The translations under genes and the position numbers were made by a program. Positions 46,067 through 64,000 of a stretch of DNA of 64,000 nucleotides are shown here, one piece after another. The notes beneath the pieces were generated by a model. The model worked only from the letters and a program-made list of their open reading frames with translations, ran no database searches and was not told the DNA's origin. The number at the start of each line of letters is the position of its first letter. The stretch's first letter is position 1. This stretch comes from an uncultured Ignavibacteriota bacterium. Lineage in GTDB: Bacteria; Bacteroidota; Ignavibacteria; Palsa-1295. The stretch spans positions 124,001-188,000 of the forward strand of contig CAIUMP010000060.1 of the NCBI GenBank assembly GCA_903900335.1, read 5' to 3'.

Positions 46067-47416
46067 ATGGCAACTATACTCTTCGTTGACGACGAAGCCT
46101 CCGCGCGCGATAATTACCGGACTATTCTGGAGCACTACGGTCACGCCGTGACGCTCGCCACGAATGTTCGCGAAGCCGTTCGCATTCTGGAGTCTCACAG
46201 CTTCGATCTTGTCATCACCGACATGCGCATGGGTGCCGAAAGCGGATTAGACATGCTCCGAGAAGCGCACAAGTTAGCGCCTGAGACGGAAGTTATCGTG
46301 TTGACAGGGCACGCAGAGCTTGAGAACGCCGTCGAAGCAATGAAGCTCGGTGCAGCGGATTACCTGACGAAAGACACCGAGTATAAAGAGATCATGCTCG
46401 TCGTCGAGAAGGCGCTGGAGAAGCATGGGCTTAAGCGAGAGATCGAACGGCTGAGGAAGCGCGTTGGCGAAGATTACGCCTACCATAGGATCGTGGGTTC
46501 AAGCCCAGCCATTGCACAATTGCACGAAGTTCTGCGCAGGGTTGCACCGACGGATTCCAGGGTGCTCATCACTGGTGAATCCGGCACAGGCAAGGAGTTG
46601 GTCGCCGAAACGCTGCATGTGAACAGCCCGCGACGCGATGCACGATTCGTGGCAATCAATTGCGGTGCAATACCGAAGGATTTACAAGAGAGCGAATTGT
46701 TCGGATACGTTCGCGGAGCATTCACTGGGGCGGATCGGGACAAGATCGGTCTGCTGGAGTCGGCAGATCGCGGCACGGTCTTTCTCGATGAGGTCGGCGA
46801 GATGTCCGCCGAGACGCAGGTTAAGCTTCTGCGCTTTTTGGAAAAAGGAGAGATCGCGCCGGTTGGAAGCCCGAAGGCCCGCGTAGTACATGTCCGAGTT
46901 ATTGCGGCGACAAATCGCGACCTCGCCGAGGCGGTTCGCGACCATAGCTTCCGGGAGGATCTGTATTATCGGTTGAAGGTGATTTCCATCCATCTACCTC
47001 CACTTCGTGAACGGCGCGAAGATATTCCGCTTCTTGCCGAGGCACTATTGAAGGAACTTGGTGCAAAGTTCAGCAGCGGCGTTAAGCGTATTTCAAAGGA
47101 TGCTATTCAAGCCCTATCATTATATGACTGGCCAGGCAATGTGCGTGAGCTGAAGAATGTGATTGAGCGCGCATTGATCTTCGCTGATGGCGATTCGATC
47201 GAGTTGGAGCATCTCCCCGAGGAGGTGTTCTCTCGCCGAAGCACTGCCTCTGACAACACATACCCAGATGGAACCCGCCCTCTCGATGAGATCGAAACGA
47301 ACTACATCATCGAAGTTCTCGAACGCAACGGTGGCAACAAACTTCTTACTGCGAAGCAGCTTAACATCGCCACGACGACGCTTTATCGCAAGCTGCGGAT
47401 GTACGGGATAGAGTAA
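46067..47416 (+). CDS. Sigma-54-dependent response regulator (NtrC family)
   Basis: 449 residues in the classic order. The receiver domain 1-120 has the phospho-Asp in ITDMRMG (about 52). The AAA+ domain ~140-375 has Walker A GESGTGKE (170-177) and the sigma-54 contact loop GAFTGAD (217-223), with Walker B near GTVFLDEVGE. The C-terminal Fis-type HTH is LNIATTTLYRKLRMYGIE. It activates transcription by sigma-54 polymerase. It sits at the head of the potassium cluster and its likely partner is the histidine kinase two genes on, in place of the KdpE-type regulator used in E. coli. I found no convincing -24/-12 promoter nearby. Confidence 0.93.
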   Translation: MATILFVDDEASARDNYRTILEHYGHAVTLATNVREAVRILESHSFDLVITDMRMGAESGLDMLREAHKLAPETEVIVLTGHAELENAVEAMKLGAADYLTKDTEYKEIMLVVEKALEKHGLKREIERLRKRVGEDYAYHRIVGSSPAIAQLHEVLRRVAPTDSRVLITGESGTGKELVAETLHVNSPRRDARFVAINCGAIPKDLQESELFGYVRGAFTGADRDKIGLLESADRGTVFLDEVGEMSAETQVKLLRFLEKGEIAPVGSPKARVVHVRVIAATNRDLAEAVRDHSFREDLYYRLKVISIHLPPLRERREDIPLLAEALLKELGAKFSSGVKRISKDAIQALSLYDWPGNVRELKNVIERALIFADGDSIELEHLPEEVFSRRSTASDNTYPDGTRPLDEIETNYIIEVLERNGGNKLLTAKQLNIATTTLYRKLRMYGIE

Positions 47417-47581
47417 TAAATCTTATCCGCCAGTAGCGATTCGCATCGAACACCTATAGCGAAACGCTATACTGGCATGCTTGCATACCTCGAATTTCGA
47501 TTGATTTGAGCAAGATTGCTCATAGGCACGTCGTTTCCATAGTGGATTCATGCTCGCGCACAATGGCGAGTTGTGATTCCA

Positions 47582-48265
47582 ATGAAAACTCTGCCTCTTA
47601 TTGCATGTGCCATTCTTCTTGGTACTGTTTGCACAGCCGCCGCACAGCAGACTATCTTTAACGTGCCGAGTCAAGACGTACTCTCACCCGGTACCGTCTA
47701 TGGCGAGATCGACGTACCATTCCGTATCGACGCACCAAAGTACGTGGCAATAACTCCGCGCGTGGTTGCTGGGCTTGGATACAATTTCGAGGGGGGCGTA
47801 AATCTTCCGGGCTACATCAACCAGGGCGATAAGCTTTGGACGGCGATGTTTACGATCAAACATAGCCAATCTCTCGACACTACTGCCCCGTGGACCCTCA
47901 CCGAAGGTGCCCATCTCTACCTGCCTCTAACAGCGGGCCGCAGCACCGGCGTATTTGGATATGTGATGACGGGCTACAAGTTGTTCGGCTCGCTGCGGCT
48001 TGATGCTGGTGGATATATTGCGACAGATGCGGTCTCCGGGACGGGCAAAAGCGAAGTTGGCGCTCTCGGTAGCATCGAATACACGCTTACGGATTGGCTG
48101 ACAATCGCGGTGGATGGTTACTCGGGTAATAATGCGCTTAGCTATATCACGCCGGGTCTTTTTGTAGGCCCATTCGGTAAGTGGATCTTCTATCCAGCAT
48201 ACCAGATCTCTAACGTATCGCGAGATGGCGACAGCTATTTGCTCGAAGCGGGATATACCTTCTAA
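47582..48265 (+). CDS. Secreted, probably outer-membrane beta-barrel-like protein in the kdp cluster
   Basis: 227 residues from the ATG at 47582. The signal peptide is KTLPLIACAILLGTVCTAAA then QQ. The mature start TIFNVPSQDVLSPGTVYGEI matches a pattern (TIFNVPSxDV..G..Y.E.D) that I associate with outer-membrane-type proteins found beside kdp genes in several phyla. The body alternates Gly/aromatic strands and ends in LLEAGYTF, a barrel-like C-terminus. It lies between the response regulator and the kinase, 15 bases before the longest kinase frame, so one transcript is plausible. A role as porin or sensor for potassium uptake is a guess. Confidence 0.72.
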   Translation: MKTLPLIACAILLGTVCTAAAQQTIFNVPSQDVLSPGTVYGEIDVPFRIDAPKYVAITPRVVAGLGYNFEGGVNLPGYINQGDKLWTAMFTIKHSQSLDTTAPWTLTEGAHLYLPLTAGRSTGVFGYVMTGYKLFGSLRLDAGGYIATDAVSGTGKSEVGALGSIEYTLTDWLTIAVDGYSGNNALSYITPGLFVGPFGKWIFYPAYQISNVSRDGDSYLLEAGYTF

Positions 48266-48516
48266 CTGGCTATATTTCGATGTCTGCAATGACATTCAGT
48301 GACGCTCTCTGGGGGAGTTCTCAATCATCGGTGCTGAGCGCAGGCTGGTTGGAGGATCCCGCGGTCAAGCAACGCGCCAAGGAGATGAGAATGCAGCCCG
48401 CGTTCGCTCGTTCAACGCGGTGGGTCGGCTCGGCATACGAAGGTATCACCGGCGACATCGAAACCGCGACGCAGGTTTTGCAAGGTCGTAGTTTTGGAGA
48501 AACTCCTAAACGACCT

Positions 48517-49806
48517 ATGGCTAATCGCATCATCGAACGCGGACTTCGTGTCCGCATCCTGACCGGATTTACGCTCGTCATCGCGCTGACGCTGCTTATT
48601 GCGGGGTGGTCGTACTACCACATCTCCACGCTCGGCACCGCTGCGGAGCACTTGTTTTTAGAGAATTATCGGAGCATCGAGTACATGCACAAGATGGAGC
48701 TGATCCTTCTTGAGACTGGGCAATCCGGTGCATCCGATTTTCAGACGCTGTCGGTAGCCGATGGAAAGATCGCCAATTTGCTTGCGCTGGAATATGCCAA
48801 CATTACCGAGCGCGGAGAACTCGCCGCGACGAAGAAGCTCGATAATGATTACCATGCGCTGCTGCGACTTCGAGCCGCAGTGGGCACATCAGTCGAGGCC
48901 ATCCGCACTGCCACTTCTCTCGTGCAGGAAGACTGCGAAGCCGTCCTTCGCATCAACGAGACCGCAATGCTTAGCAACGCCGAAGCGGTGAAGGGACAAG
49001 CACAGTTCGCTCGTTACTCAACCATTGGTATCACTGCGCTCCTTGTGAGCGTCGCAATCTTATTGTCGGCGGCTGTGTCGCGCCGGAGCCTGGCGGAATT
49101 TCAGGAATTGGATCGTGCCAAGAGCAACTTCGTAGCCACAGCGGCGCACGAACTCAAGAATCCTCTATCGAGCATCAAGACGACGAGCGGAATTCTCGCC
49201 GAGGGAATTGCCGGGCCACTCACGGAGAAGCAAAGCGACCTGATCAACAACATTCGGCGCGAATCGAACCGTGTGCTCAACCTTGTGCGCGAATTGCTCG
49301 ATCTCGCCAAACTCGAAACGGGCACGCTCCAACTCGCCCGCAGAGCGGTGGATGTTGAGACACTTATCGAAAGCGCGACACTACCGATCGCACTCCGTGC
49401 TGAAGAAGCTGGAGTAACCATCGACACAGCCGTGATGAAGAATGTACCGGATGTAATGGTTGATCCAAACAAGATGGCATGGGCAATAACGAACCTGCTT
49501 TCGAACGCGGTGCGGTATTCCGCCCGGGGCGGCTCGGTCGCAGTCAACGCAAGCGTGAACGAAGACCAAGTGTGGATTTCCGTGACGGACACAGGCAAAG
49601 GAATTGCCGAGAGTAATTTGACCCGCATCTTCGATAAATTCGCGCAAGTCGAAGAAGGTGCAATGGGAATGGGTTCTGGCTCGGGTCTCGGCCTCTCCAT
49701 CGCTCGCGAAATCACGCTGGCTCACGGAGGGCGTATTTGGGCAACCAGTACGCTCGGTCAAGGTTCGACCTTCACAATCGCACTTCCGATCAACGTAAAA
49801 GTGTAA
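48517..49806 (+). CDS. Membrane sensor histidine kinase of the kdp cluster
   Basis: 429 residues from the ATG at 48517, which puts a membrane helix (RVRILTGFTLVIALTLLIAG) at the N-terminus as usual. The frame is open back to 48280, adding 79 residues of no recognised type, and neither start has a ribosome site. A ~150-residue helical periplasmic region and a second helix (IGITALLVSVAILLSAAV) follow, with little or no HAMP. The HisKA box has the His in AAHELKNPLSSIKT. The ATPase has WAITNLLSNAVRYS, DTGKGIAE and GSGLGLSIA. It probably phosphorylates the sigma-54 activator at 46067. It supplies the kinase activity missing from the truncated KdpD at 54384. Confidence 0.9.
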   Translation: MANRIIERGLRVRILTGFTLVIALTLLIAGWSYYHISTLGTAAEHLFLENYRSIEYMHKMELILLETGQSGASDFQTLSVADGKIANLLALEYANITERGELAATKKLDNDYHALLRLRAAVGTSVEAIRTATSLVQEDCEAVLRINETAMLSNAEAVKGQAQFARYSTIGITALLVSVAILLSAAVSRRSLAEFQELDRAKSNFVATAAHELKNPLSSIKTTSGILAEGIAGPLTEKQSDLINNIRRESNRVLNLVRELLDLAKLETGTLQLARRAVDVETLIESATLPIALRAEEAGVTIDTAVMKNVPDVMVDPNKMAWAITNLLSNAVRYSARGGSVAVNASVNEDQVWISVTDTGKGIAESNLTRIFDKFAQVEEGAMGMGSGSGLGLSIAREITLAHGGRIWATSTLGQGSTFTIALPINVKV

Positions 49807-49821
49807 CACAATCACACTCCA

Positions 49822-49905
49822 ATGGACGACATACTGTATTTGGTGATCATGATTGCCTTCTTTGCGATTTCCATCGCATTCCAGGCATACTGTGATAAAG
49901 TCTAA
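49822..49905 (+). CDS. 27-residue membrane microprotein upstream of kdpF
   Basis: MDDILYLVIMIAFFAISIAF then QAYCDKV: one hydrophobic helix with an acidic N-terminus and a polar Cys-Asp-Lys end. It lies 15 bases after the kinase gene and 18 bases before kdpF. I recall similar microproteins (FFALSxAxxxxC-(E/D)-(R/K)) ahead of kdpF in other genomes, usually unannotated. It may associate with the Kdp pump or with the kinase, but its role is unknown. Confidence 0.6.
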   Translation: MDDILYLVIMIAFFAISIAFQAYCDKV

Positions 49906-49923
49906 CGAAAGGACACTACTATC

Positions 49924-50007
49924 ATGAATGGAATCTTCCTCCTCGCACTCGTCGTCGCGGTGATCGCGTATCTGATGTATGCGCTTCTCTATCCAGAGCG
50001 GTTCTAA
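49924..50007 (+). CDS. kdpF: Potassium-transporting ATPase small subunit KdpF
   Basis: 27 residues, MNGIFLLALVVAVIAYLMYA then LLYPERF. One helix with the typical KdpF end YxxxALLxPERF. KdpF stabilises the KdpFABC complex in the inner membrane. GAAAGGA lies upstream of the ATG. kdpA begins 12 bases after the stop. Confidence 0.85.
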   Translation: MNGIFLLALVVAVIAYLMYALLYPERF

Positions 50008-50019
50008 TTATTGACTACA

Positions 50020-51747
50020 ATGACTGCAAACGGTATTCTTCAACTCGTGGCGTACCTCGTCGTGCTCGTGCTGATCACGAAGCCGATGGGAGTATTCCTC
50101 ACGAAGGTCTTTCGAAACGAGAGAAACTTCCTCACGCCCGTCATGGGGCCGCTCGAACGGCTCATTTATCGTCTCTGCGGCATAAAGCCGGAGAGCGAAA
50201 TGAAGTGGACGGCCTACTCTGGCGCAGTGCTAATGTTTAGCGTCGTGAGCGCCGTGGTGCTGTATGGCATTATGCGGCTGCAAAACATTTTGCCGTGGAA
50301 TCCACAAGCATTCGGCGCCGTCGCACCCGATCTCAGCTTCAATACAGCCGTCAGCTTTACGACGAACACGAACTGGCAGGCGTACAGCGGTGAATCGACG
50401 ATGAGCTATTTCACCCAGATGGCGGGGCTCGCGTTTCACAACTTCGCATCTGCTGCGGTTGGGATTGCCATCGCGGTTGCTGTGGTGCGTGGACTCGTCC
50501 GAACCTCCGCACAGACCATCGGCAATTTCTGGGTTGATCTTGTTCGCTGCACACTCTATGTGCTGTTGCCACTCTCGATGCTTGCAACAATTGCGTTCGT
50601 GGCATCCGGCATGATTCAGAATCTCGCTCCGTATGTGACAGCTACGACGATTGAAGGTGCGAAGCAGATCATCCCAATGGGGCCGCTGGCGTCGCAAGAG
50701 GCGATCAAGATGCTCGGCACGAACGGTGGCGGCTTCTTCAATGCGAACTCCGCGCATCCGTTCGAGAACCCAACTGCACTTACAAGCTTCATTCAGGTCA
50801 TTCTCATTTTCTCCATCGGCTCCGGGCTCACCTACATGTTCGGTCGCATGGCGAAAGACCAGCGACAAGGCTGGGCGATCTGGGGCGCGATGACATTCCT
50901 ATTCCTTGCGGGTCTGGTTACATGCTATACAGCAGAACAATCGGGTAATCCAATCACCGAGAAGCTTGGCATCGAACGCACCGCAACCGCAACGCAATCC
51001 GGGGGCAACATGGAGGGCAAGGAAGTACGCTTTGGCATCGCACAGAGTGCGCTCTTTGCAACGATCACCACCGATGCTTCCTGTGGCGCGGTAAATTCGA
51101 TGCACGAGAGCTACACGCCCATTGGTGGCATGGTACCGATCTTCAACATCATGCTCGGTGAGGTTGTATTCGGAGGAGTTGGTGCGGGGCTTTACGGTAT
51201 GCTGGTCTTCGTGCTCATCTCGGTCTTCATCGCAGGATTGATGGTCGGACGAACGCCGGAGTATCTCGGCAAGAAGATAGAATCCAAAGAGGTGAAGCTC
51301 TCAATGATGGCATTGCTTTCGCTCGTCTTCTGCATACTCGGCTTCACGGCGTGGGCTATGGTGAATCCCGTTGCGCTGAAAAGCCTTGCGAACAATGGGC
51401 CGCACGGACTGACGGAGATTCTCTATGCCTACACTTCAGCGGCTGGTAATAATGGCTCCGCATTCGCAGGGCTAAACGCGAACACACAGTTCTTCAACAT
51501 TACACTCAGCATTGCAATGCTCTTCGGGCGATTCTTCGTCATCATTCCGATGCTCGCAGTAGCTGGTAGCATGGCGAAGAAGACTTCGGTCGCAGCATCG
51601 CCGGGGACATTCCTCACCAACAACGCTCTCTTCGGCACGCTGCTCGTGATGGTAATACTCATCGTCGGCGGACTTACATTCTTCCCCGCATTATCGCTCG
51701 GACCAATTCTCGAACACCTTTTGATGGGAGCAGGCAAGCTCTTTTAA
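50020..51747 (+). CDS. kdpA: Potassium-transporting ATPase subunit KdpA
   Basis: 575 residues from ATG 50020; a TTG three codons upstream is also open. It is a superfamily-of-K-transporters channel subunit with four selectivity-filter-like segments: [60 protein letters not shown] and [16 protein letters not shown]. It binds potassium from the periplasm and passes it to KdpB. About ten helices are seen. It is tightly packed in the order FABC, with the kdpB start one base after its stop. Confidence 0.97.
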
Positions 51748-51748
51748 T

Positions 51749-53788
51749 ATGGCAAAACACGAATTACATCAACAGAAGAAGCTCTTCGATGGAGCGATCG
51801 TCAAGAAGGCGAGCGTTGAAGCGCTGAAGAAACTCGACCCAAGGATTCTATGGAAGAACCCGGTCATGTTCGTCGTGGAGATCGGCGCGGTTCTCACTAC
51901 GTACTCTTGGGTGCGCGACATGATGTCTCCAACCGGAGGCGAAGCCCTCTTCTCCGGCCTCATCTCTGCGTGGCTGTGGTTCACGGTTCTCTTCGCAACG
52001 TTCGCAGAAGCGATGGCAGAAGGCCGGGGCAAAGCCCAGGCAGATGCGCTACGCAAGACGAAGACCGACACCGTCGCCAAGCAGATCGGCAAAGATGGCA
52101 ACGTCTCACACGTTAACGCAACGATGCTGCGAAAGGGCGACATCGTGCTCGTCGAAGCGGGTGACGCAATTCCTGGTGATGGCGATGCAATCGAAGGAAT
52201 CGCTTCGGTGGACGAGTCAGCAATAACAGGCGAATCTGCGCCGGTCATTCGCGAGAGCGGCGGAGATAGATGTGCAGTGACTGGCGGCACACGCGTGATC
52301 TCAGATTGGCTGAAGGTGAAGATCACTTCGAATCCCGGCGAGACTTTCATTGACAGGATGATCTCGCTCGTCGAAGGTGCGCAGCGTCAGAAGACGCCGA
52401 ACGAGATCGCCCTGACAATTCTGCTCGCTGGCATGACGATCATCTTCGTCGTGGCGCTCGTTGCATTGCAGTCGTTCGCGACGTACATGCAGAGCCCGGT
52501 TTCGATTGTCGTGCTCGTATCGCTATTGGTATGTCTTATTCCTACCACGATTGGCGGGCTTCTTTCTGCGATTGGTATTGCGGGAATTGATCGAGTGCTG
52601 CAACGCAATGTGCTTGCAATGTCCGGCCGCGCAGTCGAAGCAGCGGGAGATGTGAATACTCTGTTGCTTGATAAGACCGGCACGATCACCATCGGCAATC
52701 GCATGGCGACGGAATTCATCGCCGCGCCAGGAGTTACAATTGAGATGCTGGCACAGACTGCTCACCTTTCAAGTCTTAGTGACGAGACTCCAGAGGGACG
52801 CAGCATTGTTGCACTTGCGCAACAATCCGTGAAGGAGTTGCCGGAAGCACTGCGCACCGCTGAGAAGACGTTCATACCATTCTCTGCACACACCCGCATG
52901 AGCGGAGTTGATATTGGTGGACGATCCGTTCGCAAAGGCGCAGTGGATGCGATTGCTAAGCTTGCGGTCGGTGGTGTGCCAAGCGAGGTAACAATGGCCG
53001 TCGAGCGCATCGCGAAATCGGGCGGTACGCCGCTTGCCGTCTCCGAGGATGGTCGGATACTCGGTGTGATTCACTTGAAGGACATCGTCAAGAGTGGGAT
53101 GCGCGAACGCTTCGCTCAGTTGCGTGCGATGGGAATCAAGACCGTAATGATCACAGGCGACAACCCGCTTACCGCACGGGCAATTGCCGAGGAGGCCGGT
53201 GTTGATGACTTCCTCGCCGAGGCAACGCCTGAGGCAAAGATGGCCCTTATCCGGAAAGAGCAAGCGATGGGCAAACTCGTTGCGATGACGGGTGACGGTA
53301 CGAACGATGCACCCGCTCTTGCTCAAGCCGACGTTGGCGTGGCGATGAACACCGGTACGATGGCCGCGAAAGAGGCAGCAAACATGGTCGATCTCGACAG
53401 CAACCCGACGAAACTCATCGAAGTAGTCGAGATCGGCAAACAATTACTCATGACGCGCGGAGCTCTTACTACATTTAGCATTGCGAACGATGTGGCGAAG
53501 TACTTTGCGATCATCCCGGCAATGTTCATGGTGGCATTCCCTGAACTCAAGGCATTGAATGTGATGGATCTGCATTCGCCGCAGAGTGCAATCCTGTCTG
53601 CCGTCATTTTCAATGCACTCATCATCATCGCGCTTGTGCCGCTTGCGCTAAAGGGAATTAAGTATCGCCCTCTTGGTGCCGCCGCGGTATTGCGACGAAA
53701 CATTCTGATCTACGGCGTTGGTGGCGTCATCGTGCCGTTCATTGGTATCAAGGCCATCGATCTGATCGTGGCGGCGTTTGCTATATAG
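51749..53788 (+). CDS. kdpB: Potassium-transporting P-type ATPase subunit KdpB
   Basis: 679 residues. The phosphorylated Asp lies in [13 protein letters not shown], the TGES actuator motif in [10 protein letters not shown], and the hinge in [18 protein letters not shown]. The nucleotide-binding motif KGA lies in VRKGAVDAI. It hydrolyses ATP to drive potassium into the cell with KdpA. N-terminal cytoplasmic residues [20 protein letters not shown] are typical. It is translated immediately after kdpA and followed by kdpC after 13 bases. Confidence 0.97.
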
Positions 53789-53801
53789 GTTTGGAAAGAC
53801 T

Positions 53802-54374
53802 ATGAAAACAATTATCACATCACTCATCATGACGGTCGTGCTCACGGTGTTAGTGGGCATCATCTATCCGCTTGCGATGACGGGCATCGCGCAACTCTGC
53901 TTCCCGGATAAAGCGAATGGCAGCCTCATCACCCGAGATGGCAAAGTCATCGGCTCATCACTCATCGGGCAGAGCTTTGGCTCACCGCAGCTCTTTCATG
54001 GTCGTCCGTCGGCGGCTGGTGCTGGCTATGATGGCATGTCGTCCGGCGGCTCCAATCTCGGACCGACGAGCAAGGCCCTGATGGATCGCATCACACACGA
54101 CCGCGATTCGCTCCGCGCACTTTATCCTGAACTTGCTGGGACTTTCCCGGCTGATATGCTCACGACATCTGGCTCTGGCCTTGACCCCGACATAAGCGTA
54201 GCGAATGCGATGTTGCAAGCGAAGGTGATTTCACGAACTGATTCTCTGCCGCTTGAGACGGTTGAGACGTTGGTGCGCTCGCACGTTCAAGGTCGCGATC
54301 TTGGCTTCCTCGGTGAGGAGCATGTGAATGTGCTTGAACTTAATTTGGATTTGCTTGCACACACGAAGCACTGA
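53802..54374 (+). CDS. kdpC: Potassium-transporting ATPase subunit KdpC
   Basis: 190 residues from ATG 53802, with GGAAAGA upstream. One N-terminal helix (IITSLIMTVVLTVLVGIIYP) is followed by a periplasmic domain with the family blocks GSLITRDGKVIGSSLIGQSF, FHGRPSAAG, SGGSNLGPTSKAL, SGSGLDPDIS and the C-terminal LNLDLL. KdpC assists potassium binding and complex assembly. The kdpD-like gene starts nine bases downstream, so the whole set is one operon. Confidence 0.96.
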   Translation: MKTIITSLIMTVVLTVLVGIIYPLAMTGIAQLCFPDKANGSLITRDGKVIGSSLIGQSFGSPQLFHGRPSAAGAGYDGMSSGGSNLGPTSKALMDRITHDRDSLRALYPELAGTFPADMLTTSGSGLDPDISVANAMLQAKVISRTDSLPLETVETLVRSHVQGRDLGFLGEEHVNVLELNLDLLAHTKH

Positions 54375-54383
54375 CACCACTGC

Positions 54384-56051
54384 ATGACAGCATCTCTTTC
54401 CGTCGAAGATCTCCTCCACGAGATAAAGTACGCCAAGGAAAGCCCGCTCAGGATTTACCTTGGCGCTGCACCGGGTGTTGGCAAAACGTATCGAATGCTC
54501 GTAGATGGCAATGCGCTCCGTGCAAAGGGCGTCGATGTGGTAATCGGTTACGTCGAGCCGCACGACAGACCGGAGACACTCGCACAGCTGAAGGAGCTTG
54601 AAGTTGTAGCTCCGAAGAAGATCGAATACAAGGGCGTTGTTCTTCAAGAGTTGGATGTCGCGGCAGTCATAGCGCGAAAACCAGAAGTTGTTCTGGTCGA
54701 TGAGCTTGCGCACACAAACGCCCCATCGTCGAAGCACGAGAAACGATATCAGGACATAGAAGATCTTCTCGAAGCTGGAATCGCAGTTTTCAGCACGTGC
54801 AATATCCAGCATCTGGAGAGCGTCCACGATATGGTGGAGCGGATGACCGGCATTGAAGTGAAGGAGCGTGTGCCGGATACATTCTTCGGGCTTGCTCGGG
54901 AGATGATCATCGTTGACGTCACACCGGATGAGTTGCAGGACCGTATGCGGCAGGGCAAGATCTATCCGCTCGAACGCATCGAACGCTCGCTCAAGAATTA
55001 CTTTACCATCAGCAACATCAGCATGTTGCGGGAACTTGCGCTGCGAGAACTTGCCAATGATGTGGAGCAGAAGGACAAGGAGAAGCGGCACGAGACGAAC
55101 ACGCCTGGAACCGCGGGTTCAAGTGAGAAGGTGCTTGTCGCTATTCCCGCGAGCGGCACAGCCAAACGTCTGATCCGCGCCGGTTCGCGAATGGCGGGAC
55201 GAATGAATGCAAAGTGGATCGTGGCGTCTGTCGAATCGCCGGGCGAGAAGTGGACCGAAGAGGAAGCGGCTGTGCTTCACGAGTCGCTATCCTTGGCGCG
55301 AACGCTCGGCGCAACGGTCGTTCAGCTTCACGGGAAGGCCGTAGCCAAGACATTGGTCGCGTTCGCGAAAGAAGAAGGCATCACGCAGATCGTGATCGGT
55401 GCGACGCAGCGAGCGTGGTGGAAGCGCATTGTCTCCCGCTCGGTCGTTGCCGATCTGTTCAAACAGGTGGGAGAGATTGGTGTGTATGTCGTGCCGATTC
55501 GTCCTGATGAAGTCGGTGATGAGGACACCACGCTGCACGCAACATCCCCGCAGAAGCCAGCCGAGGCACGGGTGCGGTTAACCGATTACATCAAGCCCAA
55601 CAACATCCTTGCAAATGTTCGCGGCGTTCAAACGGTTGAGCAAACGATCGCACTTCTCATTGACAGATTGATCCAGGTGCATCCTGCTCTGGCCGTTCAT
55701 CGCTCAGAAATTTCGGAGCTGATACTAAAGCGCGAACGTCTGATGAGCACGTTTCTCGATACTGGCATTGCCATCCCACACTCTGCGGGGTTCGACGCTA
55801 TTACGGATATTCACGCAGTCATGGCGCTTGTTCCAGATGGTGTGGTCTCCCTCGGTCGGGACGACAAGGCATACATCGTGCTACTGTTTCTCTCACCGGA
55901 GGTAGGGCGCTCGAATCATCTCAAATTTCTCGCAGCGATTGCGCGGGTGTTTATTGATAAGACAACAACACGTGAAATAGCTGCGGCGCTGAGTGGTGAG
56001 GATGCGGCTGGAATGATCTTGAAGTTGGAATCGACTGGACGGACGACGTGA
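54384..56051 (+). CDS. KdpD sensor and Usp domains fused to a PtsN-type EIIA domain; no kinase domain
   Basis: 555 residues. Residues ~20-230 are the KdpD N-terminal domain: Walker A GAAPGVGKT (27-35), GYVEPHDRPET, Walker B-like VVLVDELAHTNAP and RERVP-type core. Residues ~248-373 form a universal-stress domain (KVLVAIPASG, QIVIGATQRAWWKR). Residues ~397-553 are a PTS EIIA type 2 domain of the PtsN/EIIA-Ntr group, with the phosphorylatable His in DTGIAIPHS (466) and the conserved LTDYIKPNNIL start. The four membrane helices and the HisKA/ATPase domains of full KdpD (about 890 residues) are absent. In E. coli, free EIIA-Ntr binds and stimulates KdpD, so this fusion joins two known partners. 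It follows kdpC by nine bases. Confidence 0.93.
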   Translation: MTASLSVEDLLHEIKYAKESPLRIYLGAAPGVGKTYRMLVDGNALRAKGVDVVIGYVEPHDRPETLAQLKELEVVAPKKIEYKGVVLQELDVAAVIARKPEVVLVDELAHTNAPSSKHEKRYQDIEDLLEAGIAVFSTCNIQHLESVHDMVERMTGIEVKERVPDTFFGLAREMIIVDVTPDELQDRMRQGKIYPLERIERSLKNYFTISNISMLRELALRELANDVEQKDKEKRHETNTPGTAGSSEKVLVAIPASGTAKRLIRAGSRMAGRMNAKWIVASVESPGEKWTEEEAAVLHESLSLARTLGATVVQLHGKAVAKTLVAFAKEEGITQIVIGATQRAWWKRIVSRSVVADLFKQVGEIGVYVVPIRPDEVGDEDTTLHATSPQKPAEARVRLTDYIKPNNILANVRGVQTVEQTIALLIDRLIQVHPALAVHRSEISELILKRERLMSTFLDTGIAIPHSAGFDAITDIHAVMALVPDGVVSLGRDDKAYIVLLFLSPEVGRSNHLKFLAAIARVFIDKTTTREIAAALSGEDAAGMILKLESTGRTT

Positions 56052-56329: not shown

Positions 56330-56608
56330 ATTTCCCACTGAATTCCACTTGCAAACCCAGAAGGCGAGTGAAGAACGCAACCGGCTCAGAATCGTTTCGA
56401 AAACCTTCGGCCGACCCAAAGAAAGGAGCTACGAGCTAAATTTGTAGGGACATTTCACGCCAAAATCGCCAAGGATACCCCAGCGGAATTCCGTTCTCAC
56501 CGGGGGGCGACAGAATTATTGTATTTTCGTTTCAGCCAACACCTTTGTCAGGTGTCTGGCCAACCCAACTGTCCGTTCTTTATTACTCCTAACGAATCCC
56601 TTACAGCA

Positions 56609-59600
56609 ATGCGACACTCAATCTATGCTGGTGTTCTAACAATTGTCATCGTATGTGTTAGCCTGACTTCCCCGATCCGAGCGCAGCAATCCGGCGGCCC
56701 CGGTGATGTACCGCATACGATCAGTTATCAAGCAGCCATTGCGGATGCTGCTGGCAATCCGTTGAAGGATGACGACTATGTCGTTACGGTTCGTCTGTAT
56801 GATGACAAGAACGGTTCGCATAGTGTCTGGCAGGATACCTATACTGTGCACTCCGCGCGCGGCGTTGTGAATCTCAGCCTTGGCGGTGGAAGCACTCCAC
56901 TTCCAGACGTGAGCAAGTTATCGAGTTCACTGTGGCTCAGCCTTCAGATCAACGGGGGCGCAGAAATTCGTAATGCTGGCGAACTCTCCGCCGCACCTTA
57001 TGCGCTCAATGTTCCTAACGGCTCCATCACCTCGCAGAAGATGGGTACGGACTACGTTGGTTCGGTCTCCATCAATGGACAGAAGGTCTCTGGCCGCGGG
57101 CAGGATGTCAACCTCATTACTGGTGATGGCATCACGGCGGTTGCCGATCCCGGATCGAATTCCATCGTTTTGAAGTCGGCGCCAAGTGGAATTCAGTCCC
57201 AAAAGGGTGCGAATGGGCAGACTAATCTCTCGGTCTTCGGAACACTGACAGTAACCAGTTCCACATTCCTTAATACCACAGGCGGCACAACGACAGTCTC
57301 CAGCCTGGACCCGAGCAAGCCGGTGAAGACCGATGCGAACAGGGTGCTGGTCTCCGGCGCGATGAATCTGGCTTCCAGCAATGATGTCAGTGGCACACTA
57401 CCGATCGGCAATGGAGGCACCGGAATCACTTCGGCTCCGTCCACTCATCAATTCTTACGCGATGATGCAGCAGGCCATTGGATGGCTGGCGGCATCACAT
57501 CTGCGGATATCAATGGCTCTGGCTGGTCGCTCACCGGCAATTCTGGCTCTTCCTCGGGTTCGAATTTCGTGGGAACGACGGACAATCAGGCTTTGGAGCT
57601 TCACATCTTCAACGGTGACGCTGGAAACAAAGGCAGTAAACGAGTTATGCGCTTTGAACCCACGGCAGTAAGTCCGAATATTCTGGGTGGATATCAAGGT
57701 AATCTTGGCGGATCTGGCAAAGTTGGCATTACCATTTCTGGTGGTGGTTCCTCGGGCTTTGAGAACGCGGCGACCAATGATTATGCGACAGTTGGCGGCG
57801 GCGAGCTGAACACTGCCTCGGGTAACGCAAGCTTCGTAGGTGGTGGCTTCGATAACTGGTCTTACGGCGACCAATCTACCATCATGGGTGGACGGGATAA
57901 CAACTCCCATGGCGATGCCTCGACGATCGGTGGTGGTGCAAGTAATTTCGCGACCAACCAGCAGACAACCGTGTCCGGTGGCCGCAGCAACCAAGCCACA
58001 GGGAGTGTCGCAACAGTTTCCGGTGGCGCAAGCAACACCGCATCTGGAGATTACTCCGCTATTGCGGGTGGTCAGGGATTGACCCTCTCCGGCTCTGGAA
58101 GTTTTGGTTTCAACGCCAACTCCGGTGGTGCTAACTCGATGAGCGTCTCGGCTGCAAATACTGCCGTCTTCGGCAATACGGATGTCTGGATCGGCAACAA
58201 CGACGGGACCTTCGCTTCCTCTGCACGCCAACTGCGATTGTACTCAGTTTACGGAACGAGCGGAGCCTATCCAAACGGTACACACTTTACCGCATTTCGC
58301 GCGCCCCAGGTTCTCGGAAGCGATCTCATATATACACTACCGGCAACTGGCGGCACGAGTGGTCAGGTTCTAACGACGGATGGAACTGGCATTTTAAGCT
58401 GGACAACTGCGAGCGGCAGTGGGGCAGTCTCCAGTGTTTTTGGACGCACGGGCGCGGTGGTCGCGGCCAACGGAGATTACAGCTATAGCCAAATTTCTGG
58501 TTTGGGATCTATCGTCACGCACAATCAGGGTGATTACATCGCAAACGGAACGTCGCAGCAATCATCGTCCAACTTCAACATCAGCGGCAACGGTACGATC
58601 GGCAACACATTGTCGCTTGGCGGGCCAGTAGTTCTTTCAAATGTGGATCATACTATTGACTTTGGGTACGCGACAGGGTCCACCAAAGGGCATGACATCA
58701 CGATTCAGTCCGAGGCCGCAGGCGCGGCATCCGCAGGTGGTGACTTGTGGCTCATGTCCGGTTTGGGGGGTGACGCATCAGGCACGGCCGCGGGAGGCAC
58801 GGGTGGTCTAATTTATGTAGTGGCCAACGACGGCGGCAACGCGAACTCAGCGTTCGCAGCTGGTTCTGGGGGTCCGGTGATCGTTAACGGCGGAACCGGC
58901 GGAGCCTCGTTCGCGACTCGAAGTGCAGGTACTGGTGGTGTGGTCTCTGTTGCGGGCGGATCTGGCGGACTTGGAAATGGCGCTTCCGCTCCCTCTGGAA
59001 ATGGTGGCCAGTTGCTTCTTACAGGTGGAAATGCCACTTCCAATCCTGGCGGAAGCATGGGTAACGGGGGGAATGTCACTATCGGTGGCGGGCAAGGCAC
59101 CACGAACGGATCCGTCTCCATCCAGACCAACGGTGGTAGCCTGATGATGGGTGGCGCGGCAGTCCCACTCACGATCAACTCCACACACTTCGCAGTAAGC
59201 TCATCGGGTTCGGTCTCGGGAGTTACATCGCTCACGAATAACGGTCTGCTTACCCAGATAGGCACGGCGAGTTTTAGCGATCAGATCATCACTCCGCTCG
59301 CGGCAGGTGTCGTGCATAGCAATGGCACAGGTAATCCGCTGACCACCTCAGCAGTGACGTTGAATAGCGAGGTAACGGGAACGTTGCCCGTTGCTAATGG
59401 CGGAACCGGTTCGAGCACGGCATCCGGCGCACGCACGAACCTCGGGCTTGGTACGATCGCCACGCACGCTCAGGGCGACTATATTCTGAATGGAACAACC
59501 CCTCAAGCACCAGCCAGTTTCTCGATCGATGGCAATGGCACGATCGGCAATAATCTGGGACTCGGTAACTCTATCATTTTGGGAGAGGGAGACCATTTTA

Positions 59601-62600
59601 TCCACTATGCCGCCGCTTCGTCATTTACCAACACGTTGCTTATCGCCGCGCAGGATGGCACGACCGCCACACTTGGAGGATCCCTCGTGCTTGGCTCTGG
59701 AGTCGGTGGCCAGGCGGGCTCTGCTCTTCCTGGAGGAGCCGGTGGACATATCTACGTAACCGCTGGTGATGGCGGTGTTGCAAGCACGACTGCTGCAGCC
59801 GGAACCGGTGGACAAATGAATCTCAATGGCGGATCGGGTGGCGCGGCGGCTGGATCAACAGTTGGTGGCAATGGAGGTGTCGTCGCGATCGCAGGTGGAG
59901 CAAGCGGACAAGGTAACGGTTCTTCTGCTGCCTCTGGGAATGGCGGCGGGTTGTTCCTTACAGGTGGCAGTGCAGTTTCAAATCCCGGCGGTAGCATGGG
60001 CAACGGAGGTAATGTTACGATCGCAGGTGGTGATGGGACGACCAAAGGAACGGTGTCGATTCAGACGAACGGCGGCAGTCTTACCATGGGCAGCGCGGCA
60101 GTCCCACTCACGATCAGCTCAACACATTTCGCTGTAAGCGCCTCGGGTTCGGTCACTGGCGTGACGTCATTAACGAACACTGGGCTTCTGACCCAAAGCG
60201 GCACCGCAAGCTTCGGCGATCAGATCATCACTCCGCTTGCAGCAGGAATTGTTCATAGCAACGGCACTGGTACTCCCCTCTCCGCATCAGCCGTCGCGCT
60301 GGGAAGTGATGTCAGCGGCACGCTGCCCATCTCGAATGGTGGCACGGGTGCCACTACCGCTTCCGCCGCAGCAGCGAATCTCCTTCCCGACCAGACTGGG
60401 AATTCTGGTAAATTCCTGAAGACCAATGGCTCCGGCACGCTGAGTTGGGATTTTGCTGGTGCTGCCTCAGGCTGGGGCGTAACGGGCAATAGCGGGACCA
60501 CTCCTGGAACAAACTTTGTCGGCACGACCGACAATACTGCGTTTGAGATTCACGTCTATGATGGTGACGGTACTTCCAATGAGGGTTCGAAACGAGTGAT
60601 GCGGTATGAACCCAACTCTACGAGCGCAAACATCATTGGTGGTTATCAGGGGAATACCGTGGCGGCATCACAAGCTGGCGTGACCATCGCGGGCGGCGGC
60701 AAAGACCATTATCCCAATGTAGTTTCTGGCCAATTTGGGACCATCAGTGGAGGATATGGGAATACGATCTCTACTGGAGCTACGGGCGGCACGATTGGTG
60801 GAGGTTTCTCTAATACCGCTTCCTATCTTGCGGCTACAGTCGCTGGCGGTTATTCCAACACCGCGTCAACATTAGGTTCTACCGTTGGGGGCGGACATGA
60901 CAACACTGCCCTCGGAAACTCTGCGACGGTCGCGGGTGGTAGCGTGAATCAAGCGAACGGATTTTCGGCTGCAATTTTAGGTGGATCCAATAACACGGCG
61001 GCAGATGATGCTTTTGTGGGTGGTGGTTACACGAATACAGCAAACGGGCCGTTCTCGATGATCCCAGGCGGCGAAGGTTTGACCTTCACCAGTGCCGCTT
61101 CCTATAGCTTTGGAATCCTCGCCAACGAAGGATTCCTCACCTATGGCATGACTGTAGCTGCTCCGAAGACGGCCGTCTTCGGAAATATGGATGTGTGGAT
61201 CGGCAACAACGATAACACCGCTCAGAGCGCAGCGCGGCAGCTACGGTTCTATTCACCCTATGGTACGAATGGGGCCTACCCGAACGGTACGCACTACACC
61301 GCCTTCCGCGCTGCGACGGGCATGACGGCCGATCTTACATATACCCTTCCGGCCACCGCCCCGACAGCGGGCCAAGTCCTTTCATCCACTGCTGCTGGAG
61401 TGCTCAGTTGGGCAGACGCAGGTGGTGGATCTCTTTCGGGTGATGTCACCGGCACACTCAGTGCAACGCACGTTGCGCTGGTCGGCGGCTCAACGGCCGC
61501 GAATGTGCATAGCGCGGAACTGGCGGCAAATGCGGCGACGGACGTGAATGCCGCGAGCACCATTGTCAAACGAGATGCGAGTGGTGCATTCCACGCAGGT
61601 GCGATCACGGTTGGTGTCGTTACCTCTACTGGCATCCAGGTGGGCAACAATTCTGGTGGTAACGTTGGCGCAATTTCGTTTGGCGACGGGTTCAGTCATT
61701 TCGGTGCGATCGATGCCGATAATGGCTTTACCGCCGACCGTTCCTTCCACCTGCCAGATCAGACTGGGACGCTTGCGCTTACCTCCGATCTTGCGAATAC
61801 CGCCCTTCACGGAGATGTAACGGGTACCACAGGAGCTACTGTCGTTTCATTCGTTGGCACCTCCTCCGCCTCAAATGTGCATAGCGCAGAGCTGGCAGCA
61901 AATGCGGCAACCAGCGCGAACACACCGTCAACGATCGTTCGTCGAGGAGCAGACGGCACGATACACGCTGGCTACATTCAGGGCTCCTCGTTCGAGGCTG
62001 GAGATGCGAGCACACATGGATTCTACGTGCTCAACGACGGCGCGACACACACTGGCACAATCCAATTCAACGGCCCGATCTCGCAATCCCGCACCTACTG
62101 GTTGCCGGACAATGACGGGACGATCGCGCTGAGCTCGGATATTCCATCGGCCAGCAGCTTCATTCATAATGGAACGACGCTTCAATCGGCGGCGAACTTT
62201 AACATTGACGGCAACGGCTCGATCGGTGGCAACCTTAGCATCGCTTCCCTCTCACCCGCGATGCCGGTTCGCGTAGATGCCTCGAATAACCTGGTCTCGT
62301 TGCAGATCGACCTGAGCCGTCCGGATAACGTGACGAATGTGCTCGCCGTAAGCAACGGCGGAACCGGCGTGGTCAACACGGGGGCGCACAACGTGTTTGC
62401 TGGTCCAACGGGTGGAATCGCAGCACCATCGTGGAGACAACTTGATCCGACAGATATCCCCGATATAAGCGGCAGTTATATCAAGAATGGCTCCTCGACC
62501 CAGTCGGGCGCGAATTTCAATGTTGATGGTAATGGCTCGATCGGTGGAACATTGGCATTTCCTGGGACCGACGACAATGGCTCTGTATTCATGGGGCCGG

Positions 62601-64000
62601 ACGGATATGATGGCAATAACGCCCTCAATTTGGATGTGACTGGGGATGGAGATGGCATCATCAATCTCGATATTGAAGGTTCGATGGTTGCCTCCATTCA
62701 GAATAGCTACTTCGGGCATCCCGGCATCTCGCTGGCGCCTGGTGCGGCGTTCTACGGAGATGGAAGCGGTTTGACAAATATTCCAACGACCAACAATTAC
62801 ATTCAGAACGGCACTTCACTTCAATCCGGCTCCAACTTTAACATTTCGGGCAGCGGGTATATCGGTAGCCATCTCGGCGTTGGGACGGCGACACCCGCCT
62901 CCCAACTTGAGGTTCGCAACGATCAGGATGCAGGTACGGAGGTCTTTGTGACAAATAATTCCAACAGTGGGAATTCCTTCGCCGGCTTCCGGGCACGCTC
63001 GACAAGTGACGCATATTTTGGCGTCAATGCGACGAACGCCTCCTCCGGTGCACTCGGCGTCGATCGTGCGTTTGTGTATAATACCGCTAATGGTATTGCC
63101 TTGCGAGCGGCAGGTTCTTCGAGTGACATCGCGTTCTCGACTGGCGGCGATGCTACCAGCAACGTTCGTATGAAGATTACGAGCGGCGGGAACGTCGGTA
63201 TTGGTACGACAACCCCGACCGAGGCGCTCGACGTCGCAGGTAACATTCACGCTTCCGGTACGATCCATAGCGGGAATTCCGTCATCATTGATGGAACGAC
63301 CGCCACGCGCACGATCACATCGGATGCAACGATGAATGTCTCAACGACTTCGGGTAATTTGTCCTTGCTGCCAGCTGGCAATGTTGGAATCGGGACTTCA
63401 TCCCCAAGCTCGACACTCGATGTCGCTGGTACCTTGAATACAAGCGGCAATGCCTCGTTTGGCGGTACTGTTGGTGTCACGGGCACCGTGACGGCTTCCG
63501 CGTTCTCGGGCGACGGCAGCGGACTTAGCAATCTTACTATCCCTGCGGGCTCGGGTCACTACATTCAGAATGGATCGACGTTGCAAACCAGTGCTACATT
63601 CAATATCGATGGGAATGGCTATATCGGCGGCAGCGTCGGTATCGGCACGACGACACCCTCGGCATCGCTGGAAATCGCTGGCTCGCTCCTTGCGAGCGGT
63701 ACATCTGGGGCTACCCCCGTTTCTGGCGCGGGAACGCGTATGATGTGGGTACCCGCAAAAGCCGCGTTCCGGGCAGGTGAAGTTACTGGGACGCAGTGGG
63801 ACAATGCAAACATTGGCACGGCATCTTTTGCAGTGGGACATGGAGCTAAGGCAAGCGGCGACTACTCTTCGGCAACTGGTTACCTTACGCTTGCCTCTGG
63901 TCAGTACTCCACGGCAGCAGGTCACACGTCTGTGGCAAGCGGCGCGAATTCTACGGCGCTTGGGTACACCGCTCAAGCAACTGGCTACTCCTCGTCAGCT
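56609..64000 (+). CDS. Giant exported surface protein with YadA-type head repeats and tail-fibre-like motifs; 3' end beyond window
   Basis: The frame from ATG 56609 has no stop through the right edge: at least 2464 codons. The N-terminus is a signal peptide (YAGVLTIVIVCVSLTSPIRA then Q) and a domain opening HTISYQAAIADAAGNPLKDD and ending APYALNV, a form common on long cell-surface proteins of this phylum. Then come YadA-type head repeats (GG-x-x-N-x-A-x-G; 57730-58100, 60690-61080 and a classic run from 63800), VFGRTGAVVAANGDYSYSQI and NGGTGSSTASGARTNLGLG like tail fibres, two Gly-rich blocks, and four GIGT-x-x-P-x-x-x-L-(D/E)-V motifs. Six copies of YI-x-NG-(8)-NFNI-x-GNG-x-IG occur. It is probably an adhesin or long fibre; a type IX sorting or anchor domain may lie beyond the window. 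No ribosome site precedes the ATG. Confidence 0.88.
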   Translation, partial: MRHSIYAGVLTIVIVCVSLTSPIRAQQSGGPGDVPHTISYQAAIADAAGNPLKDDDYVVTVRLYDDKNGSHSVWQDTYTVHSARGVVNLSLGGGSTPLPDVSKLSSSLWLSLQINGGAEIRNAGELSAAPYALNVPNGSITSQKMGTDYVGSVSINGQKVSGRGQDVNLITGDGITAVADPGSNSIVLKSAPSGIQSQKGANGQTNLSVFGTLTVTSSTFLNTTGGTTTVSSLDPSKPVKTDANRVLVSGAMNLASSNDVSGTLPIGNGGTGITSAPSTHQFLRDDAAGHWMAGGITSADINGSGWSLTGNSGSSSGSNFVGTTDNQALELHIFNGDAGNKGSKRVMRFEPTAVSPNILGGYQGNLGGSGKVGITISGGGSSGFENAATNDYATVGGGELNTASGNASFVGGGFDNWSYGDQSTIMGGRDNNSHGDASTIGGGASNFATNQQTTVSGGRSNQATGSVATVSGGASNTASGDYSAIAGGQGLTLSGSGSFGFNANSGGANSMSVSAANTAVFGNTDVWIGNNDGTFASSARQLRLYSVYGTSGAYPNGTHFTAFRAPQVLGSDLIYTLPATGGTSGQVLTTDGTGILSWTTASGSGAVSSVFGRTGAVVAANGDYSYSQISGLGSIVTHNQGDYIANGTSQQSSSNFNISGNGTIGNTLSLGGPVVLSNVDHTIDFGYATGSTKGHDITIQSEAAGAASAGGDLWLMSGLGGDASGTAAGGTGGLIYVVANDGGNANSAFAAGSGGPVIVNGGTGGASFATRSAGTGGVVSVAGGSGGLGNGASAPSGNGGQLLLTGGNATSNPGGSMGNGGNVTIGGGQGTTNGSVSIQTNGGSLMMGGAAVPLTINSTHFAVSSSGSVSGVTSLTNNGLLTQIGTASFSDQIITPLAAGVVHSNGTGNPLTTSAVTLNSEVTGTLPVANGGTGSSTASGARTNLGLGTIATHAQGDYILNGTTPQAPASFSIDGNGTIGNNLGLGNSIILGEGDHFIHYAAASSFTNTLLIAAQDGTTATLGGSLVLGSGVGGQAGSALPGGAGGHIYVTAGDGGVASTTAAAGTGGQMNLNGGSGGAAAGSTVGGNGGVVAIAGGASGQGNGSSAASGNGGGLFLTGGSAVSNPGGSMGNGGNVTIAGGDGTTKGTVSIQTNGGSLTMGSAAVPLTISSTHFAVSASGSVTGVTSLTNTGLLTQSGTASFGDQIITPLAAGIVHSNGTGTPLSASAVALGSDVSGTLPISNGGTGATTASAAAANLLPDQTGNSGKFLKTNGSGTLSWDFAGAASGWGVTGNSGTTPGTNFVGTTDNTAFEIHVYDGDGTSNEGSKRVMRYEPNSTSANIIGGYQGNTVAASQAGVTIAGGGKDHYPNVVSGQFGTISGGYGNTISTGATGGTIGGGFSNTASYLAATVAGGYSNTASTLGSTVGGGHDNTALGNSATVAGGSVNQANGFSAAILGGSNNTAADDAFVGGGYTNTANGPFSMIPGGEGLTFTSAASYSFGILANEGFLTYGMTVAAPKTAVFGNMDVWIGNNDNTAQSAARQLRFYSPYGTNGAYPNGTHYTAFRAATGMTADLTYTLPATAPTAGQVLSSTAAGVLSWADAGGGSLSGDVTGTLSATHVALVGGSTAANVHSAELAANAATDVNAASTIVKRDASGAFHAGAITVGVVTSTGIQVGNNSGGNVGAISFGDGFSHFGAIDADNGFTADRSFHLPDQTGTLALTSDLANTALHGDVTGTTGATVVSFVGTSSASNVHSAELAANAATSANTPSTIVRRGADGTIHAGYIQGSSFEAGDASTHGFYVLNDGATHTGTIQFNGPISQSRTYWLPDNDGTIALSSDIPSASSFIHNGTTLQSAANFNIDGNGSIGGNLSIASLSPAMPVRVDASNNLVSLQIDLSRPDNVTNVLAVSNGGTGVVNTGAHNVFAGPTGGIAAPSWRQLDPTDIPDISGSYIKNGSSTQSGANFNVDGNGSIGGTLAFPGTDDNGSVFMGPDGYDGNNALNLDVTGDGDGIINLDIEGSMVASIQNSYFGHPGISLAPGAAFYGDGSGLTNIPTTNNYIQNGTSLQSGSNFNISGSGYIGSHLGVGTATPASQLEVRNDQDAGTEVFVTNNSNSGNSFAGFRARSTSDAYFGVNATNASSGALGVDRAFVYNTANGIALRAAGSSSDIAFSTGGDATSNVRMKITSGGNVGIGTTTPTEALDVAGNIHASGTIHSGNSVIIDGTTATRTITSDATMNVSTTSGNLSLLPAGNVGIGTSSPSSTLDVAGTLNTSGNASFGGTVGVTGTVTASAFSGDGSGLSNLTIPAGSGHYIQNGSTLQTSATFNIDGNGYIGGSVGIGTTTPSASLEIAGSLLASGTSGATPVSGAGTRMMWVPAKAAFRAGEVTGTQWDNANIGTASFAVGHGAKASGDYSSATGYLTLASGQYSTAAGHTSVASGANSTALGYTAQATGYSSSA
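57480..61400 (+). repeat. A-B-B'-A' internal duplication in the giant surface gene
   Basis: Module A (about 57480-58430) runs from GNSGSSSGSNFVGTTDN through GSKRVMRFEP, YadA-type repeats, TAVFGNTDVWIGNN and AYPNGTHFTAFRA to YTLPATGGTSGQ. Module A' (about 60440-61400) repeats the same series (GNSGTTPGTNFVGTTDN, GSKRVMRYEP, TAVFGNMDVWIGNN, AYPNGTHYTAFRA). Between them B (about 58470-59400) and B' (about 59430-60340) share QGDYI-x-NGT, a Gly/Ser-rich block, NPGGSMGNGGNVTI, AAVPLTI, QIITPLAAG and LP-x-x-NGGTG. The symmetric order suggests successive duplications of a tail-fibre-like unit. Confidence 0.8.
58535..63640 (+). repeat. Six copies of a YI-NG-NFNI-GNG-IG peptide repeat
   Basis: Copies begin at 58535, 59480, 62159, 62477, 62798 and 63560. 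The consensus is (Y/F)I-x-NG-(T/S)-x-x-Q-x-x-x-x-F-(N/S)-(I/V)-(D/S)-G-(N/S)-G-x-IG. The first two start modules B and B', and the last four are packed within 1.5 kb. Each introduces a new block ending in a GIGT-type or Gly-rich segment. Confidence 0.8.

What the first reader, a model, noticed from the sequence alone, without database searches (positions are those of the whole stretch)
54384..56051. KdpD-Usp-EIIA fusion: a potassium sensor protein with a built-in PtsN-like domain and no kinase
The sequence shows KdpD ATP-binding (20-230), Usp (248-373) and a full EIIA-type 2 domain with its His (466), but no membrane helices and no histidine kinase. It is known that free EIIA-Ntr binds E. coli KdpD and raises its kinase activity. 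Here the two interacting proteins are one chain and the kinase is a separate protein (48517-49806). I infer a soluble adaptor that integrates PTS phosphorylation state, ATP or c-di-AMP-type signals, and passes them to the separate membrane kinase or directly to the pump. Short KdpD proteins without the kinase are known; the EIIA fusion is the unusual part.
Basis: partly seen in the sequence, partly recalled or inferred. Interest (0 to 1): 0.78.

Follow-up and report, generated by a model that had tools for sequence, protein, structure and literature searches.

The report
Potassium regulator fused to PTS sensor
A soluble bacterial potassium-uptake regulator carries a built-in copy of the sugar-phosphotransferase signalling domain known elsewhere to touch its relatives as a separate protein; the same fusion recurs in several phyla beside a dedicated sensor kinase, even in genomes with no Kdp pump, so it probably reports cell energy state to potassium uptake.

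Summary
In detail: window 54384-56051 encodes a 555-aa soluble KdpD(20-227)-Usp(248-360)-EIIA(403-541) protein; His466 aligns with PtsN His73. It is no assembly join: all 7 sampled species of its genus carry it (72-77% identity). The architecture recurs in Chlorobiaceae, Syntrophaceae, Desulfobacteraceae, Aminicenantes and Phycisphaerales. Two corrections. First, it is not kinase-free: the KdpD domain is a known atypical serine kinase acting on KdpB (PMC11018627), and its catalytic residues are intact. Second, these genomes keep a free EIIA. A sensor kinase lies in the cluster in every locus with upstream sequence; four near-complete Chlorobiaceae genomes have the fusion but no KdpA, and in the three whose wider locus I read it sits beside a KimA-like K+ importer, a histidine kinase and a sigma54 regulator. 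Best reading: a PTS-responsive regulator working with a dedicated kinase/sigma54-regulator pair, plus pump inactivation where KdpB exists. A same-family genome has an unfused EIIA gene in its kdp operon. No paper in the held library describes the fusion. New variant of a known kind.

The parts
54384..56051 (+). KdpD-Usp-EIIA fusion, 555 aa
54441..55064 (+). KdpD domain (aa 20-227), atypical serine kinase type; Walker A G27-T35, Walker B D106/E107, R187
   Evidence: Pfam PF02702 1.3e-88; residue mapping on E. coli KdpD; 2r8r Z 28.2
55125..55463 (+). Usp domain (aa 248-360; fold match 247-373)
   Evidence: Pfam 1.3e-5; 7ji4 Z 18.5
55506..55571 (+). low-confidence, probably flexible linker (aa 375-396)
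   Evidence: pLDDT under 50 at 375-393
55572..56042 (+). EIIA (PtsN-like) domain, aa 397-553
   Evidence: Pfam PF00359; 1a6j Z 17.6
55779..55781 (+). His466 codon, equivalent of PtsN His73 (phosphoacceptor)
46067..47416 (+). NtrC-type sigma54 response regulator, 449 aa
   Evidence: Pfam Response_reg, Sigma54_activat, HTH_8
47573..48265 (+). 230-aa ORF without a Pfam match, probably secreted outer-membrane protein; a genus relative has a BBP2 porin in this slot
48280..49806 (+). separate membrane histidine kinase, 508 aa, TM about 88-112 and 243-272, H-box His290
48532..49104 (+). kinase TM plus periplasmic sensor domain (NYRS...NIT..GE), predicted four-helix bundle
49822..49905 (+). 27-aa hydrophobic small ORF
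49924..50007 (+). 27-aa KdpF-like small ORF directly before kdpA
50011..51747 (+). kdpA
   Evidence: PF03814 1.5e-241
51749..53788 (+). kdpB; TGES at aa 160-163, Ser163 = E. coli Ser162
53778..54374 (+). kdpC (mechanical ORF; true start probably a little downstream)
   Evidence: PF02669 2.2e-67

Best explanation
The protein is a soluble, PTS-responsive regulator of potassium uptake. Its N-terminal KdpD domain is an atypical serine kinase and Usp is its regulatory neighbour. The C-terminal EIIA domain accepts phosphate from PEP via EI and HPr on His466, so its phosphorylation state reports PEP/energy supply. It works with a dedicated membrane histidine kinase and an NtrC-type sigma54 response regulator encoded in the same cluster. 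I infer that the EIIA state is passed to that kinase, setting transcription of the K+ importer genes (kdpABC here, a KimA-like importer in some relatives), and that where KdpB is present the serine-kinase domain also inactivates the pump on Ser163. Shown: domains, intact active-site residues, PTS partners in the genome, conserved cluster, and existence of the fusion in genomes without KdpA. Inferred: His466 phosphorylation, contact with the kinase, sign of the effect, serine-kinase activity of this protein, and operon transcription.
For: Domains and folds. Serine-kinase residues G33/K34/T35/D106/E107/R187 match E. coli G36/K37/T38/D109/E110/R190, with Y36 for W39; E. coli and Deinococcus KdpD domains phosphorylate KdpB (PMC11018627); window KdpB keeps TGES. 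R450 and H466 are invariant in all 33 fusion sequences tabulated; H512 is H or Q. HPr and EI genes in 30/30 fusion genomes, HprK in 28/30. In 22 distinct fusion loci with 3 kb or more upstream, a histidine kinase is in the cluster in all and kdpA in about 17. Four genomes 98-100% complete have the fusion but no KdpA; in the three whose wider locus I read the fusion lies beside a KimA-like importer (KimA 6s3k, 6e-65), HK and sigma54 RR. Partner kinases share a sensor domain: hhalign 98.7% and 99.6% between groups, controls under 2%. In another genus of the same family an unfused EIIA gene sits between RR and kdpA. Literature: free PtsN binds KdpD in E. coli, Rhizobium, Sinorhizobium and Pseudomonas (PMC13104625, PMC9239096).
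Against: No experiment. EIIA contacts known elsewhere are with the transmitter or GAF domain of KdpD; neither is in this chain, so the target on the separate kinase is inferred. PTS presence is confounded with ancestry: 4 of 21 sampled short-KdpD genomes without EIIA also have HPr. Intact serine-kinase residues in Kdp-less genomes do not fit a pure EIIA-to-HK adaptor and ask for another substrate. No sigma54 -24/-12 site was found before the window operon.
Confidence: 0.6

Rival explanations
1. The EIIA domain acts in cis only: His466 phosphorylation gates the serine kinase, which phosphorylates KdpB Ser163 and shuts the pump. There is no contact with the histidine kinase.
For: The gene directly follows kdpC, the arrangement that PMC11018627 takes as giving enough serine kinase to inhibit the pump; catalytic residues and KdpB TGES are intact.
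Against: Four near-complete genomes keep the fusion without KdpA. Leu replaces the adenine-stacking aromatic in one HK/KimA-linked subgroup, yet its EIIA site stays intact.
Confidence: 0.22
2. The EIIA domain is a phosphate-independent binding or scaffold module, or a remnant, and does not respond to the PTS.
For: EIIA scores far below the PtsN equivalog cut-off (43.9 against 138.7); the H512 equivalent is Gln in some fusions.
Against: His466 and Arg450 are invariant although overall identity to the window is only 33-38% outside the genus; EI and HPr are in every fusion genome.
Confidence: 0.1
3. c-di-AMP through the Usp domain is the main input, as in short KdpD of Deinococcus; EIIA is secondary.
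For: The window genome has a diadenylate cyclase; the Usp fold matches the c-di-AMP-bound KdpD Usp 7ji4.
Against: SXS-X20-FTAXY is absent, although that motif was defined for S. aureus-type KdpD; the 7 Chlorobiaceae fusion genomes tested have no diadenylate cyclase.
Confidence: 0.08

Closest known systems
KdpD-like non-kinase potassium sensor (NF038185; short KdpD/Usp of Deinococcus, Anabaena, Bacteroidota)
   Same: KdpD + Usp, soluble, in a kdp operon, histidine kinase on a separate chain.
   Different: These have no EIIA; Deinococcus geothermalis KdpD is c-di-AMP stimulated (PMC11018627).
EIIA-Ntr / PtsN acting on KdpD (E. coli, Rhizobium, Sinorhizobium, Pseudomonas)
   Same: EIIA type-2 domain with phospho-His, tied to Kdp regulation.
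   Different: There it is a separate protein binding a full-length histidine kinase; here it is fused to a chain without transmitter or GAF domain.
ptsN2 in alphaproteobacterial kdp operons
   Same: An EIIA gene recruited to the kdp operon (PMC13104625).
   Different: Separate gene beside canonical KdpDE; here a fusion beside an NtrC-type regulator. The same-family locus L193 is closer to this state.
Serine kinase domain of E. coli KdpD
   Same: Same fold and catalytic residues; KdpB target serine conserved.
   Different: Y for W39; soluble chain; possible PTS input; some relatives have no KdpA.

Membership tests
KdpD sensor histidine kinase (full length) | N-terminal KdpD domain | tested here: met
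   PF02702 296 bits
KdpD sensor histidine kinase (full length) | transmembrane region and HisKA/HATPase transmitter | tested here: not met
   No TM-like segment, no HisKA/HATPase
NF038185 KdpD_non_kinase | full-length profile match | tested here: met
   Profile 5-370 of 373 matched by residues 6-370, 413 bits
NF038185 KdpD_non_kinase | curated score cut-off (550 bits) | tested here: not met
   413 bits; an EIIA-less Bacteroidota short KdpD also falls below (393)
KdpD atypical serine kinase | Walker A G-X5-GKT, Walker B D/E, adenine-binding W39/R190 | tested here: met
   G33 K34 T35, D106 E107, R187; Y36 in place of W39
KdpD atypical serine kinase | phosphorylates KdpB at the TGES serine | not testable with these tools
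   TGES present in window KdpB; activity needs an assay
PTS_EIIA_2 (PF00359) | profile above gathering cut-off, and fold | tested here: met
   52.2 against 27 bits; 1a6j Z 17.6
PTS_EIIA_2 (PF00359) | phosphoacceptor His with pocket Arg and His | tested here: met
   R450, H466, H512
PtsN equivalog (TIGR01419) | score above curated cut-off 138.7 | tested here: not met
   43.9 bits; the genome has another, free EIIA
c-di-AMP-binding KdpD (S. aureus type) | SXS-X20-FTAXY motif in Usp | tested here: not met
   Absent in the window and all compared fusions (motif from PMC4686210)

The most novel reading that the evidence does not exclude
A separate class of K+ signalling module: a KdpD-type serine kinase fused to a PTS EIIA receiver acts mainly as a soluble input unit for a dedicated histidine kinase with an unnamed periplasmic sensor and a sigma54 regulator. 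It serves different K+ importers (Kdp or KimA-like), is independent of the Kdp pump, and probably arose by two separate gene fusions plus at least one unfused EIIA recruitment. In Kdp-less species the serine kinase has a new substrate.
Probability: 0.3. Interest if true: 0.75.

Novelty: new variant of a known kind. Interest (0 to 1): 0.6.

Why it matters
PtsN-KdpD contact is known in proteobacteria, but the contact site and the active form of PtsN differ between species. Here the EIIA domain is covalently tied to the non-histidine-kinase part of KdpD, recurrently and in several phyla, which gives a natural construct for asking what EIIA does to the serine-kinase half. The genomes without KdpA let the pump-inactivating and transcription roles be tested apart.

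Tried and rejected
Assembly join: rejected by 7 of 7 genus genomes. Fusion replaces missing ptsN: rejected, free EIIA present in all 23 fusion genomes tested. Single versus double origin: both trees favour two origins (KdpD-Usp: no bootstrap tree in which the fusions form a single group; EIIA: separate clades), but AU tests do not reject one clade (p 0.30; p 0.41), so it stays open; long branches in the EIIA tree. A test of the fusions without L068 did not finish. Sigma54 -24/-12 scan: strong sites about 205-260 bp before kdpA in a few Bacteroidota short-KdpD loci, none in the window. Terminator after the fusion: none found. Literature: no paper found describing the fusion; supplements of PMC11018627 could not be read.

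Full report
Observation. The ORF at 54384-56051 encodes 555 aa with KdpD, Usp and PTS_EIIA_2 domains. A model built on 15 sequences (mean pLDDT 76.8) gives three domains with a low-confidence linker near 375-393; they match solved KdpD-N, KdpD-Usp and EIIA-Ntr structures at Z 28.2, 18.5 and 17.6. There is no TM-like segment and no histidine-kinase core. E. coli residues were read from the K-12 record: PtsN R57/H73/H120 align with R450/H466/H512, and KdpD G36/K37/T38/D109/E110/R190 with G33/K34/T35/D106/E107/R187, W39 being Y36.

Not kinase-free. PMC11018627 shows that the KdpD N-terminal domain is an atypical serine kinase that phosphorylates KdpB Ser162 and inactivates the pump at high K+, and that a short KdpD/Usp protein does this under c-di-AMP control. 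The window KdpB keeps the TGES serine (Ser163). That paper's main text does not mention EIIA.

Distribution. In the phylum sample, full-length matches occur in the window's genus and in about half of the family f20 genomes; a named Chlorobiaceae record groups with these in the tree. Other phyla have it too: Syntrophaceae, Desulfobacteraceae, Phycisphaerales, Aminicenantes and an unnamed bacterium. All seven sampled genomes of the window's genus have it; two other genera of the family have short KdpD only. Across 33 fusion sequences R450 and H466 are invariant; H512 is H or Q.

Cluster. The window order is sigma54 RR, porin-like ORF, HK, two small ORFs (one KdpF-like), kdpABC, fusion. Relatives show RR-HK-kdpABC-fusion, and in Chlorobiaceae also RR-KimA-like-HK-fusion without kdpABC. 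The 664-aa neighbour matches KimA 6s3k at 6e-65 and recurs in 11 loci. Of 22 distinct loci with 3 kb or more upstream, a histidine kinase is present in all; kdpA in about 17 (one search counts L033/L113 twice and misses L060, whose kdpA is hidden by an antisense ORF but found). Genomes G165, G048, G177 and G094 (98-100% complete) carry the fusion and no KdpA. For G165, G048 and G177 I read the wider locus; for G094 only a short stretch.

Partner kinase. The TM/periplasmic part of the window kinase has no Pfam match, but profile comparison links it to the kinases beside Chlorobiaceae/delta fusions (98.7%) and beside Bacteroidota short KdpD (99.6%), against under 2% for four control kinases. Eight sequences share N-Y, N-x-T and E positions; the model is a four-helix bundle (pLDDT 87).

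PTS. HPr and EI genes are in 30 of 30 fusion genomes and HprK in 28. Of sampled short-KdpD genomes without EIIA, 4 of 21 have HPr; of full-length-KdpD genomes 13 of 13. This fits a PTS input but is confounded with ancestry. Free EIIA exists in all 23 fusion genomes tested. Diadenylate cyclase is present in the genus but absent in the 7 Chlorobiaceae tested, so c-di-AMP is unlikely to be the general input.

Origin. KdpD-Usp and EIIA trees each place the window's fusion apart from the larger fusion clade; AU tests do not reject a single origin. In L193 (same family) a separate EIIA gene with its His lies between RR and kdpA and groups with the free EIIA of the window's genus.

Mechanism. I infer that PEP-derived phosphate on His466 tells the module about energy supply; the fusion passes this to the dedicated kinase and sigma54 regulator and, where the pump exists, to KdpB by serine phosphorylation. 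The sign is unknown: elsewhere unphosphorylated PtsN usually stimulates KdpD, but the phosphorylated form is active in P. putida (PMC13104625).

Noticed in passing
window 56519-64000 (+): Very long open ORF (at least 2494 aa, runs off the window) with internal repeats of 55-300 nt and no Pfam match, starting about 470 bp after the fusion.
   Followed up: partly
window 48532-49104 and partner kinases in related loci: Un-named periplasmic sensor domain (NYRS...NIT..GE, predicted four-helix bundle) shared by the kinases next to non-histidine-kinase KdpD proteins; no Pfam family.
   Followed up: partly
L193:1883-2362: Free-standing EIIA gene inside a kdp operon, between the sigma54 regulator and kdpA, in another genus of the window's family.
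   Followed up: yes
L128:12023-14017 and 10 other Chlorobiaceae loci: KimA-like potassium importer next to the HK/fusion pair.
   Followed up: partly
L068:7028-11564: HK, short KdpD without EIIA and a sigma54-type regulator in a row with no kdpABC beside them (Myxococcota MAG), nested in the fusion clade: a possible loss of EIIA.
   Followed up: no
window 49822-49905: 27-aa hydrophobic small ORF before the KdpF-like ORF.
   Followed up: no
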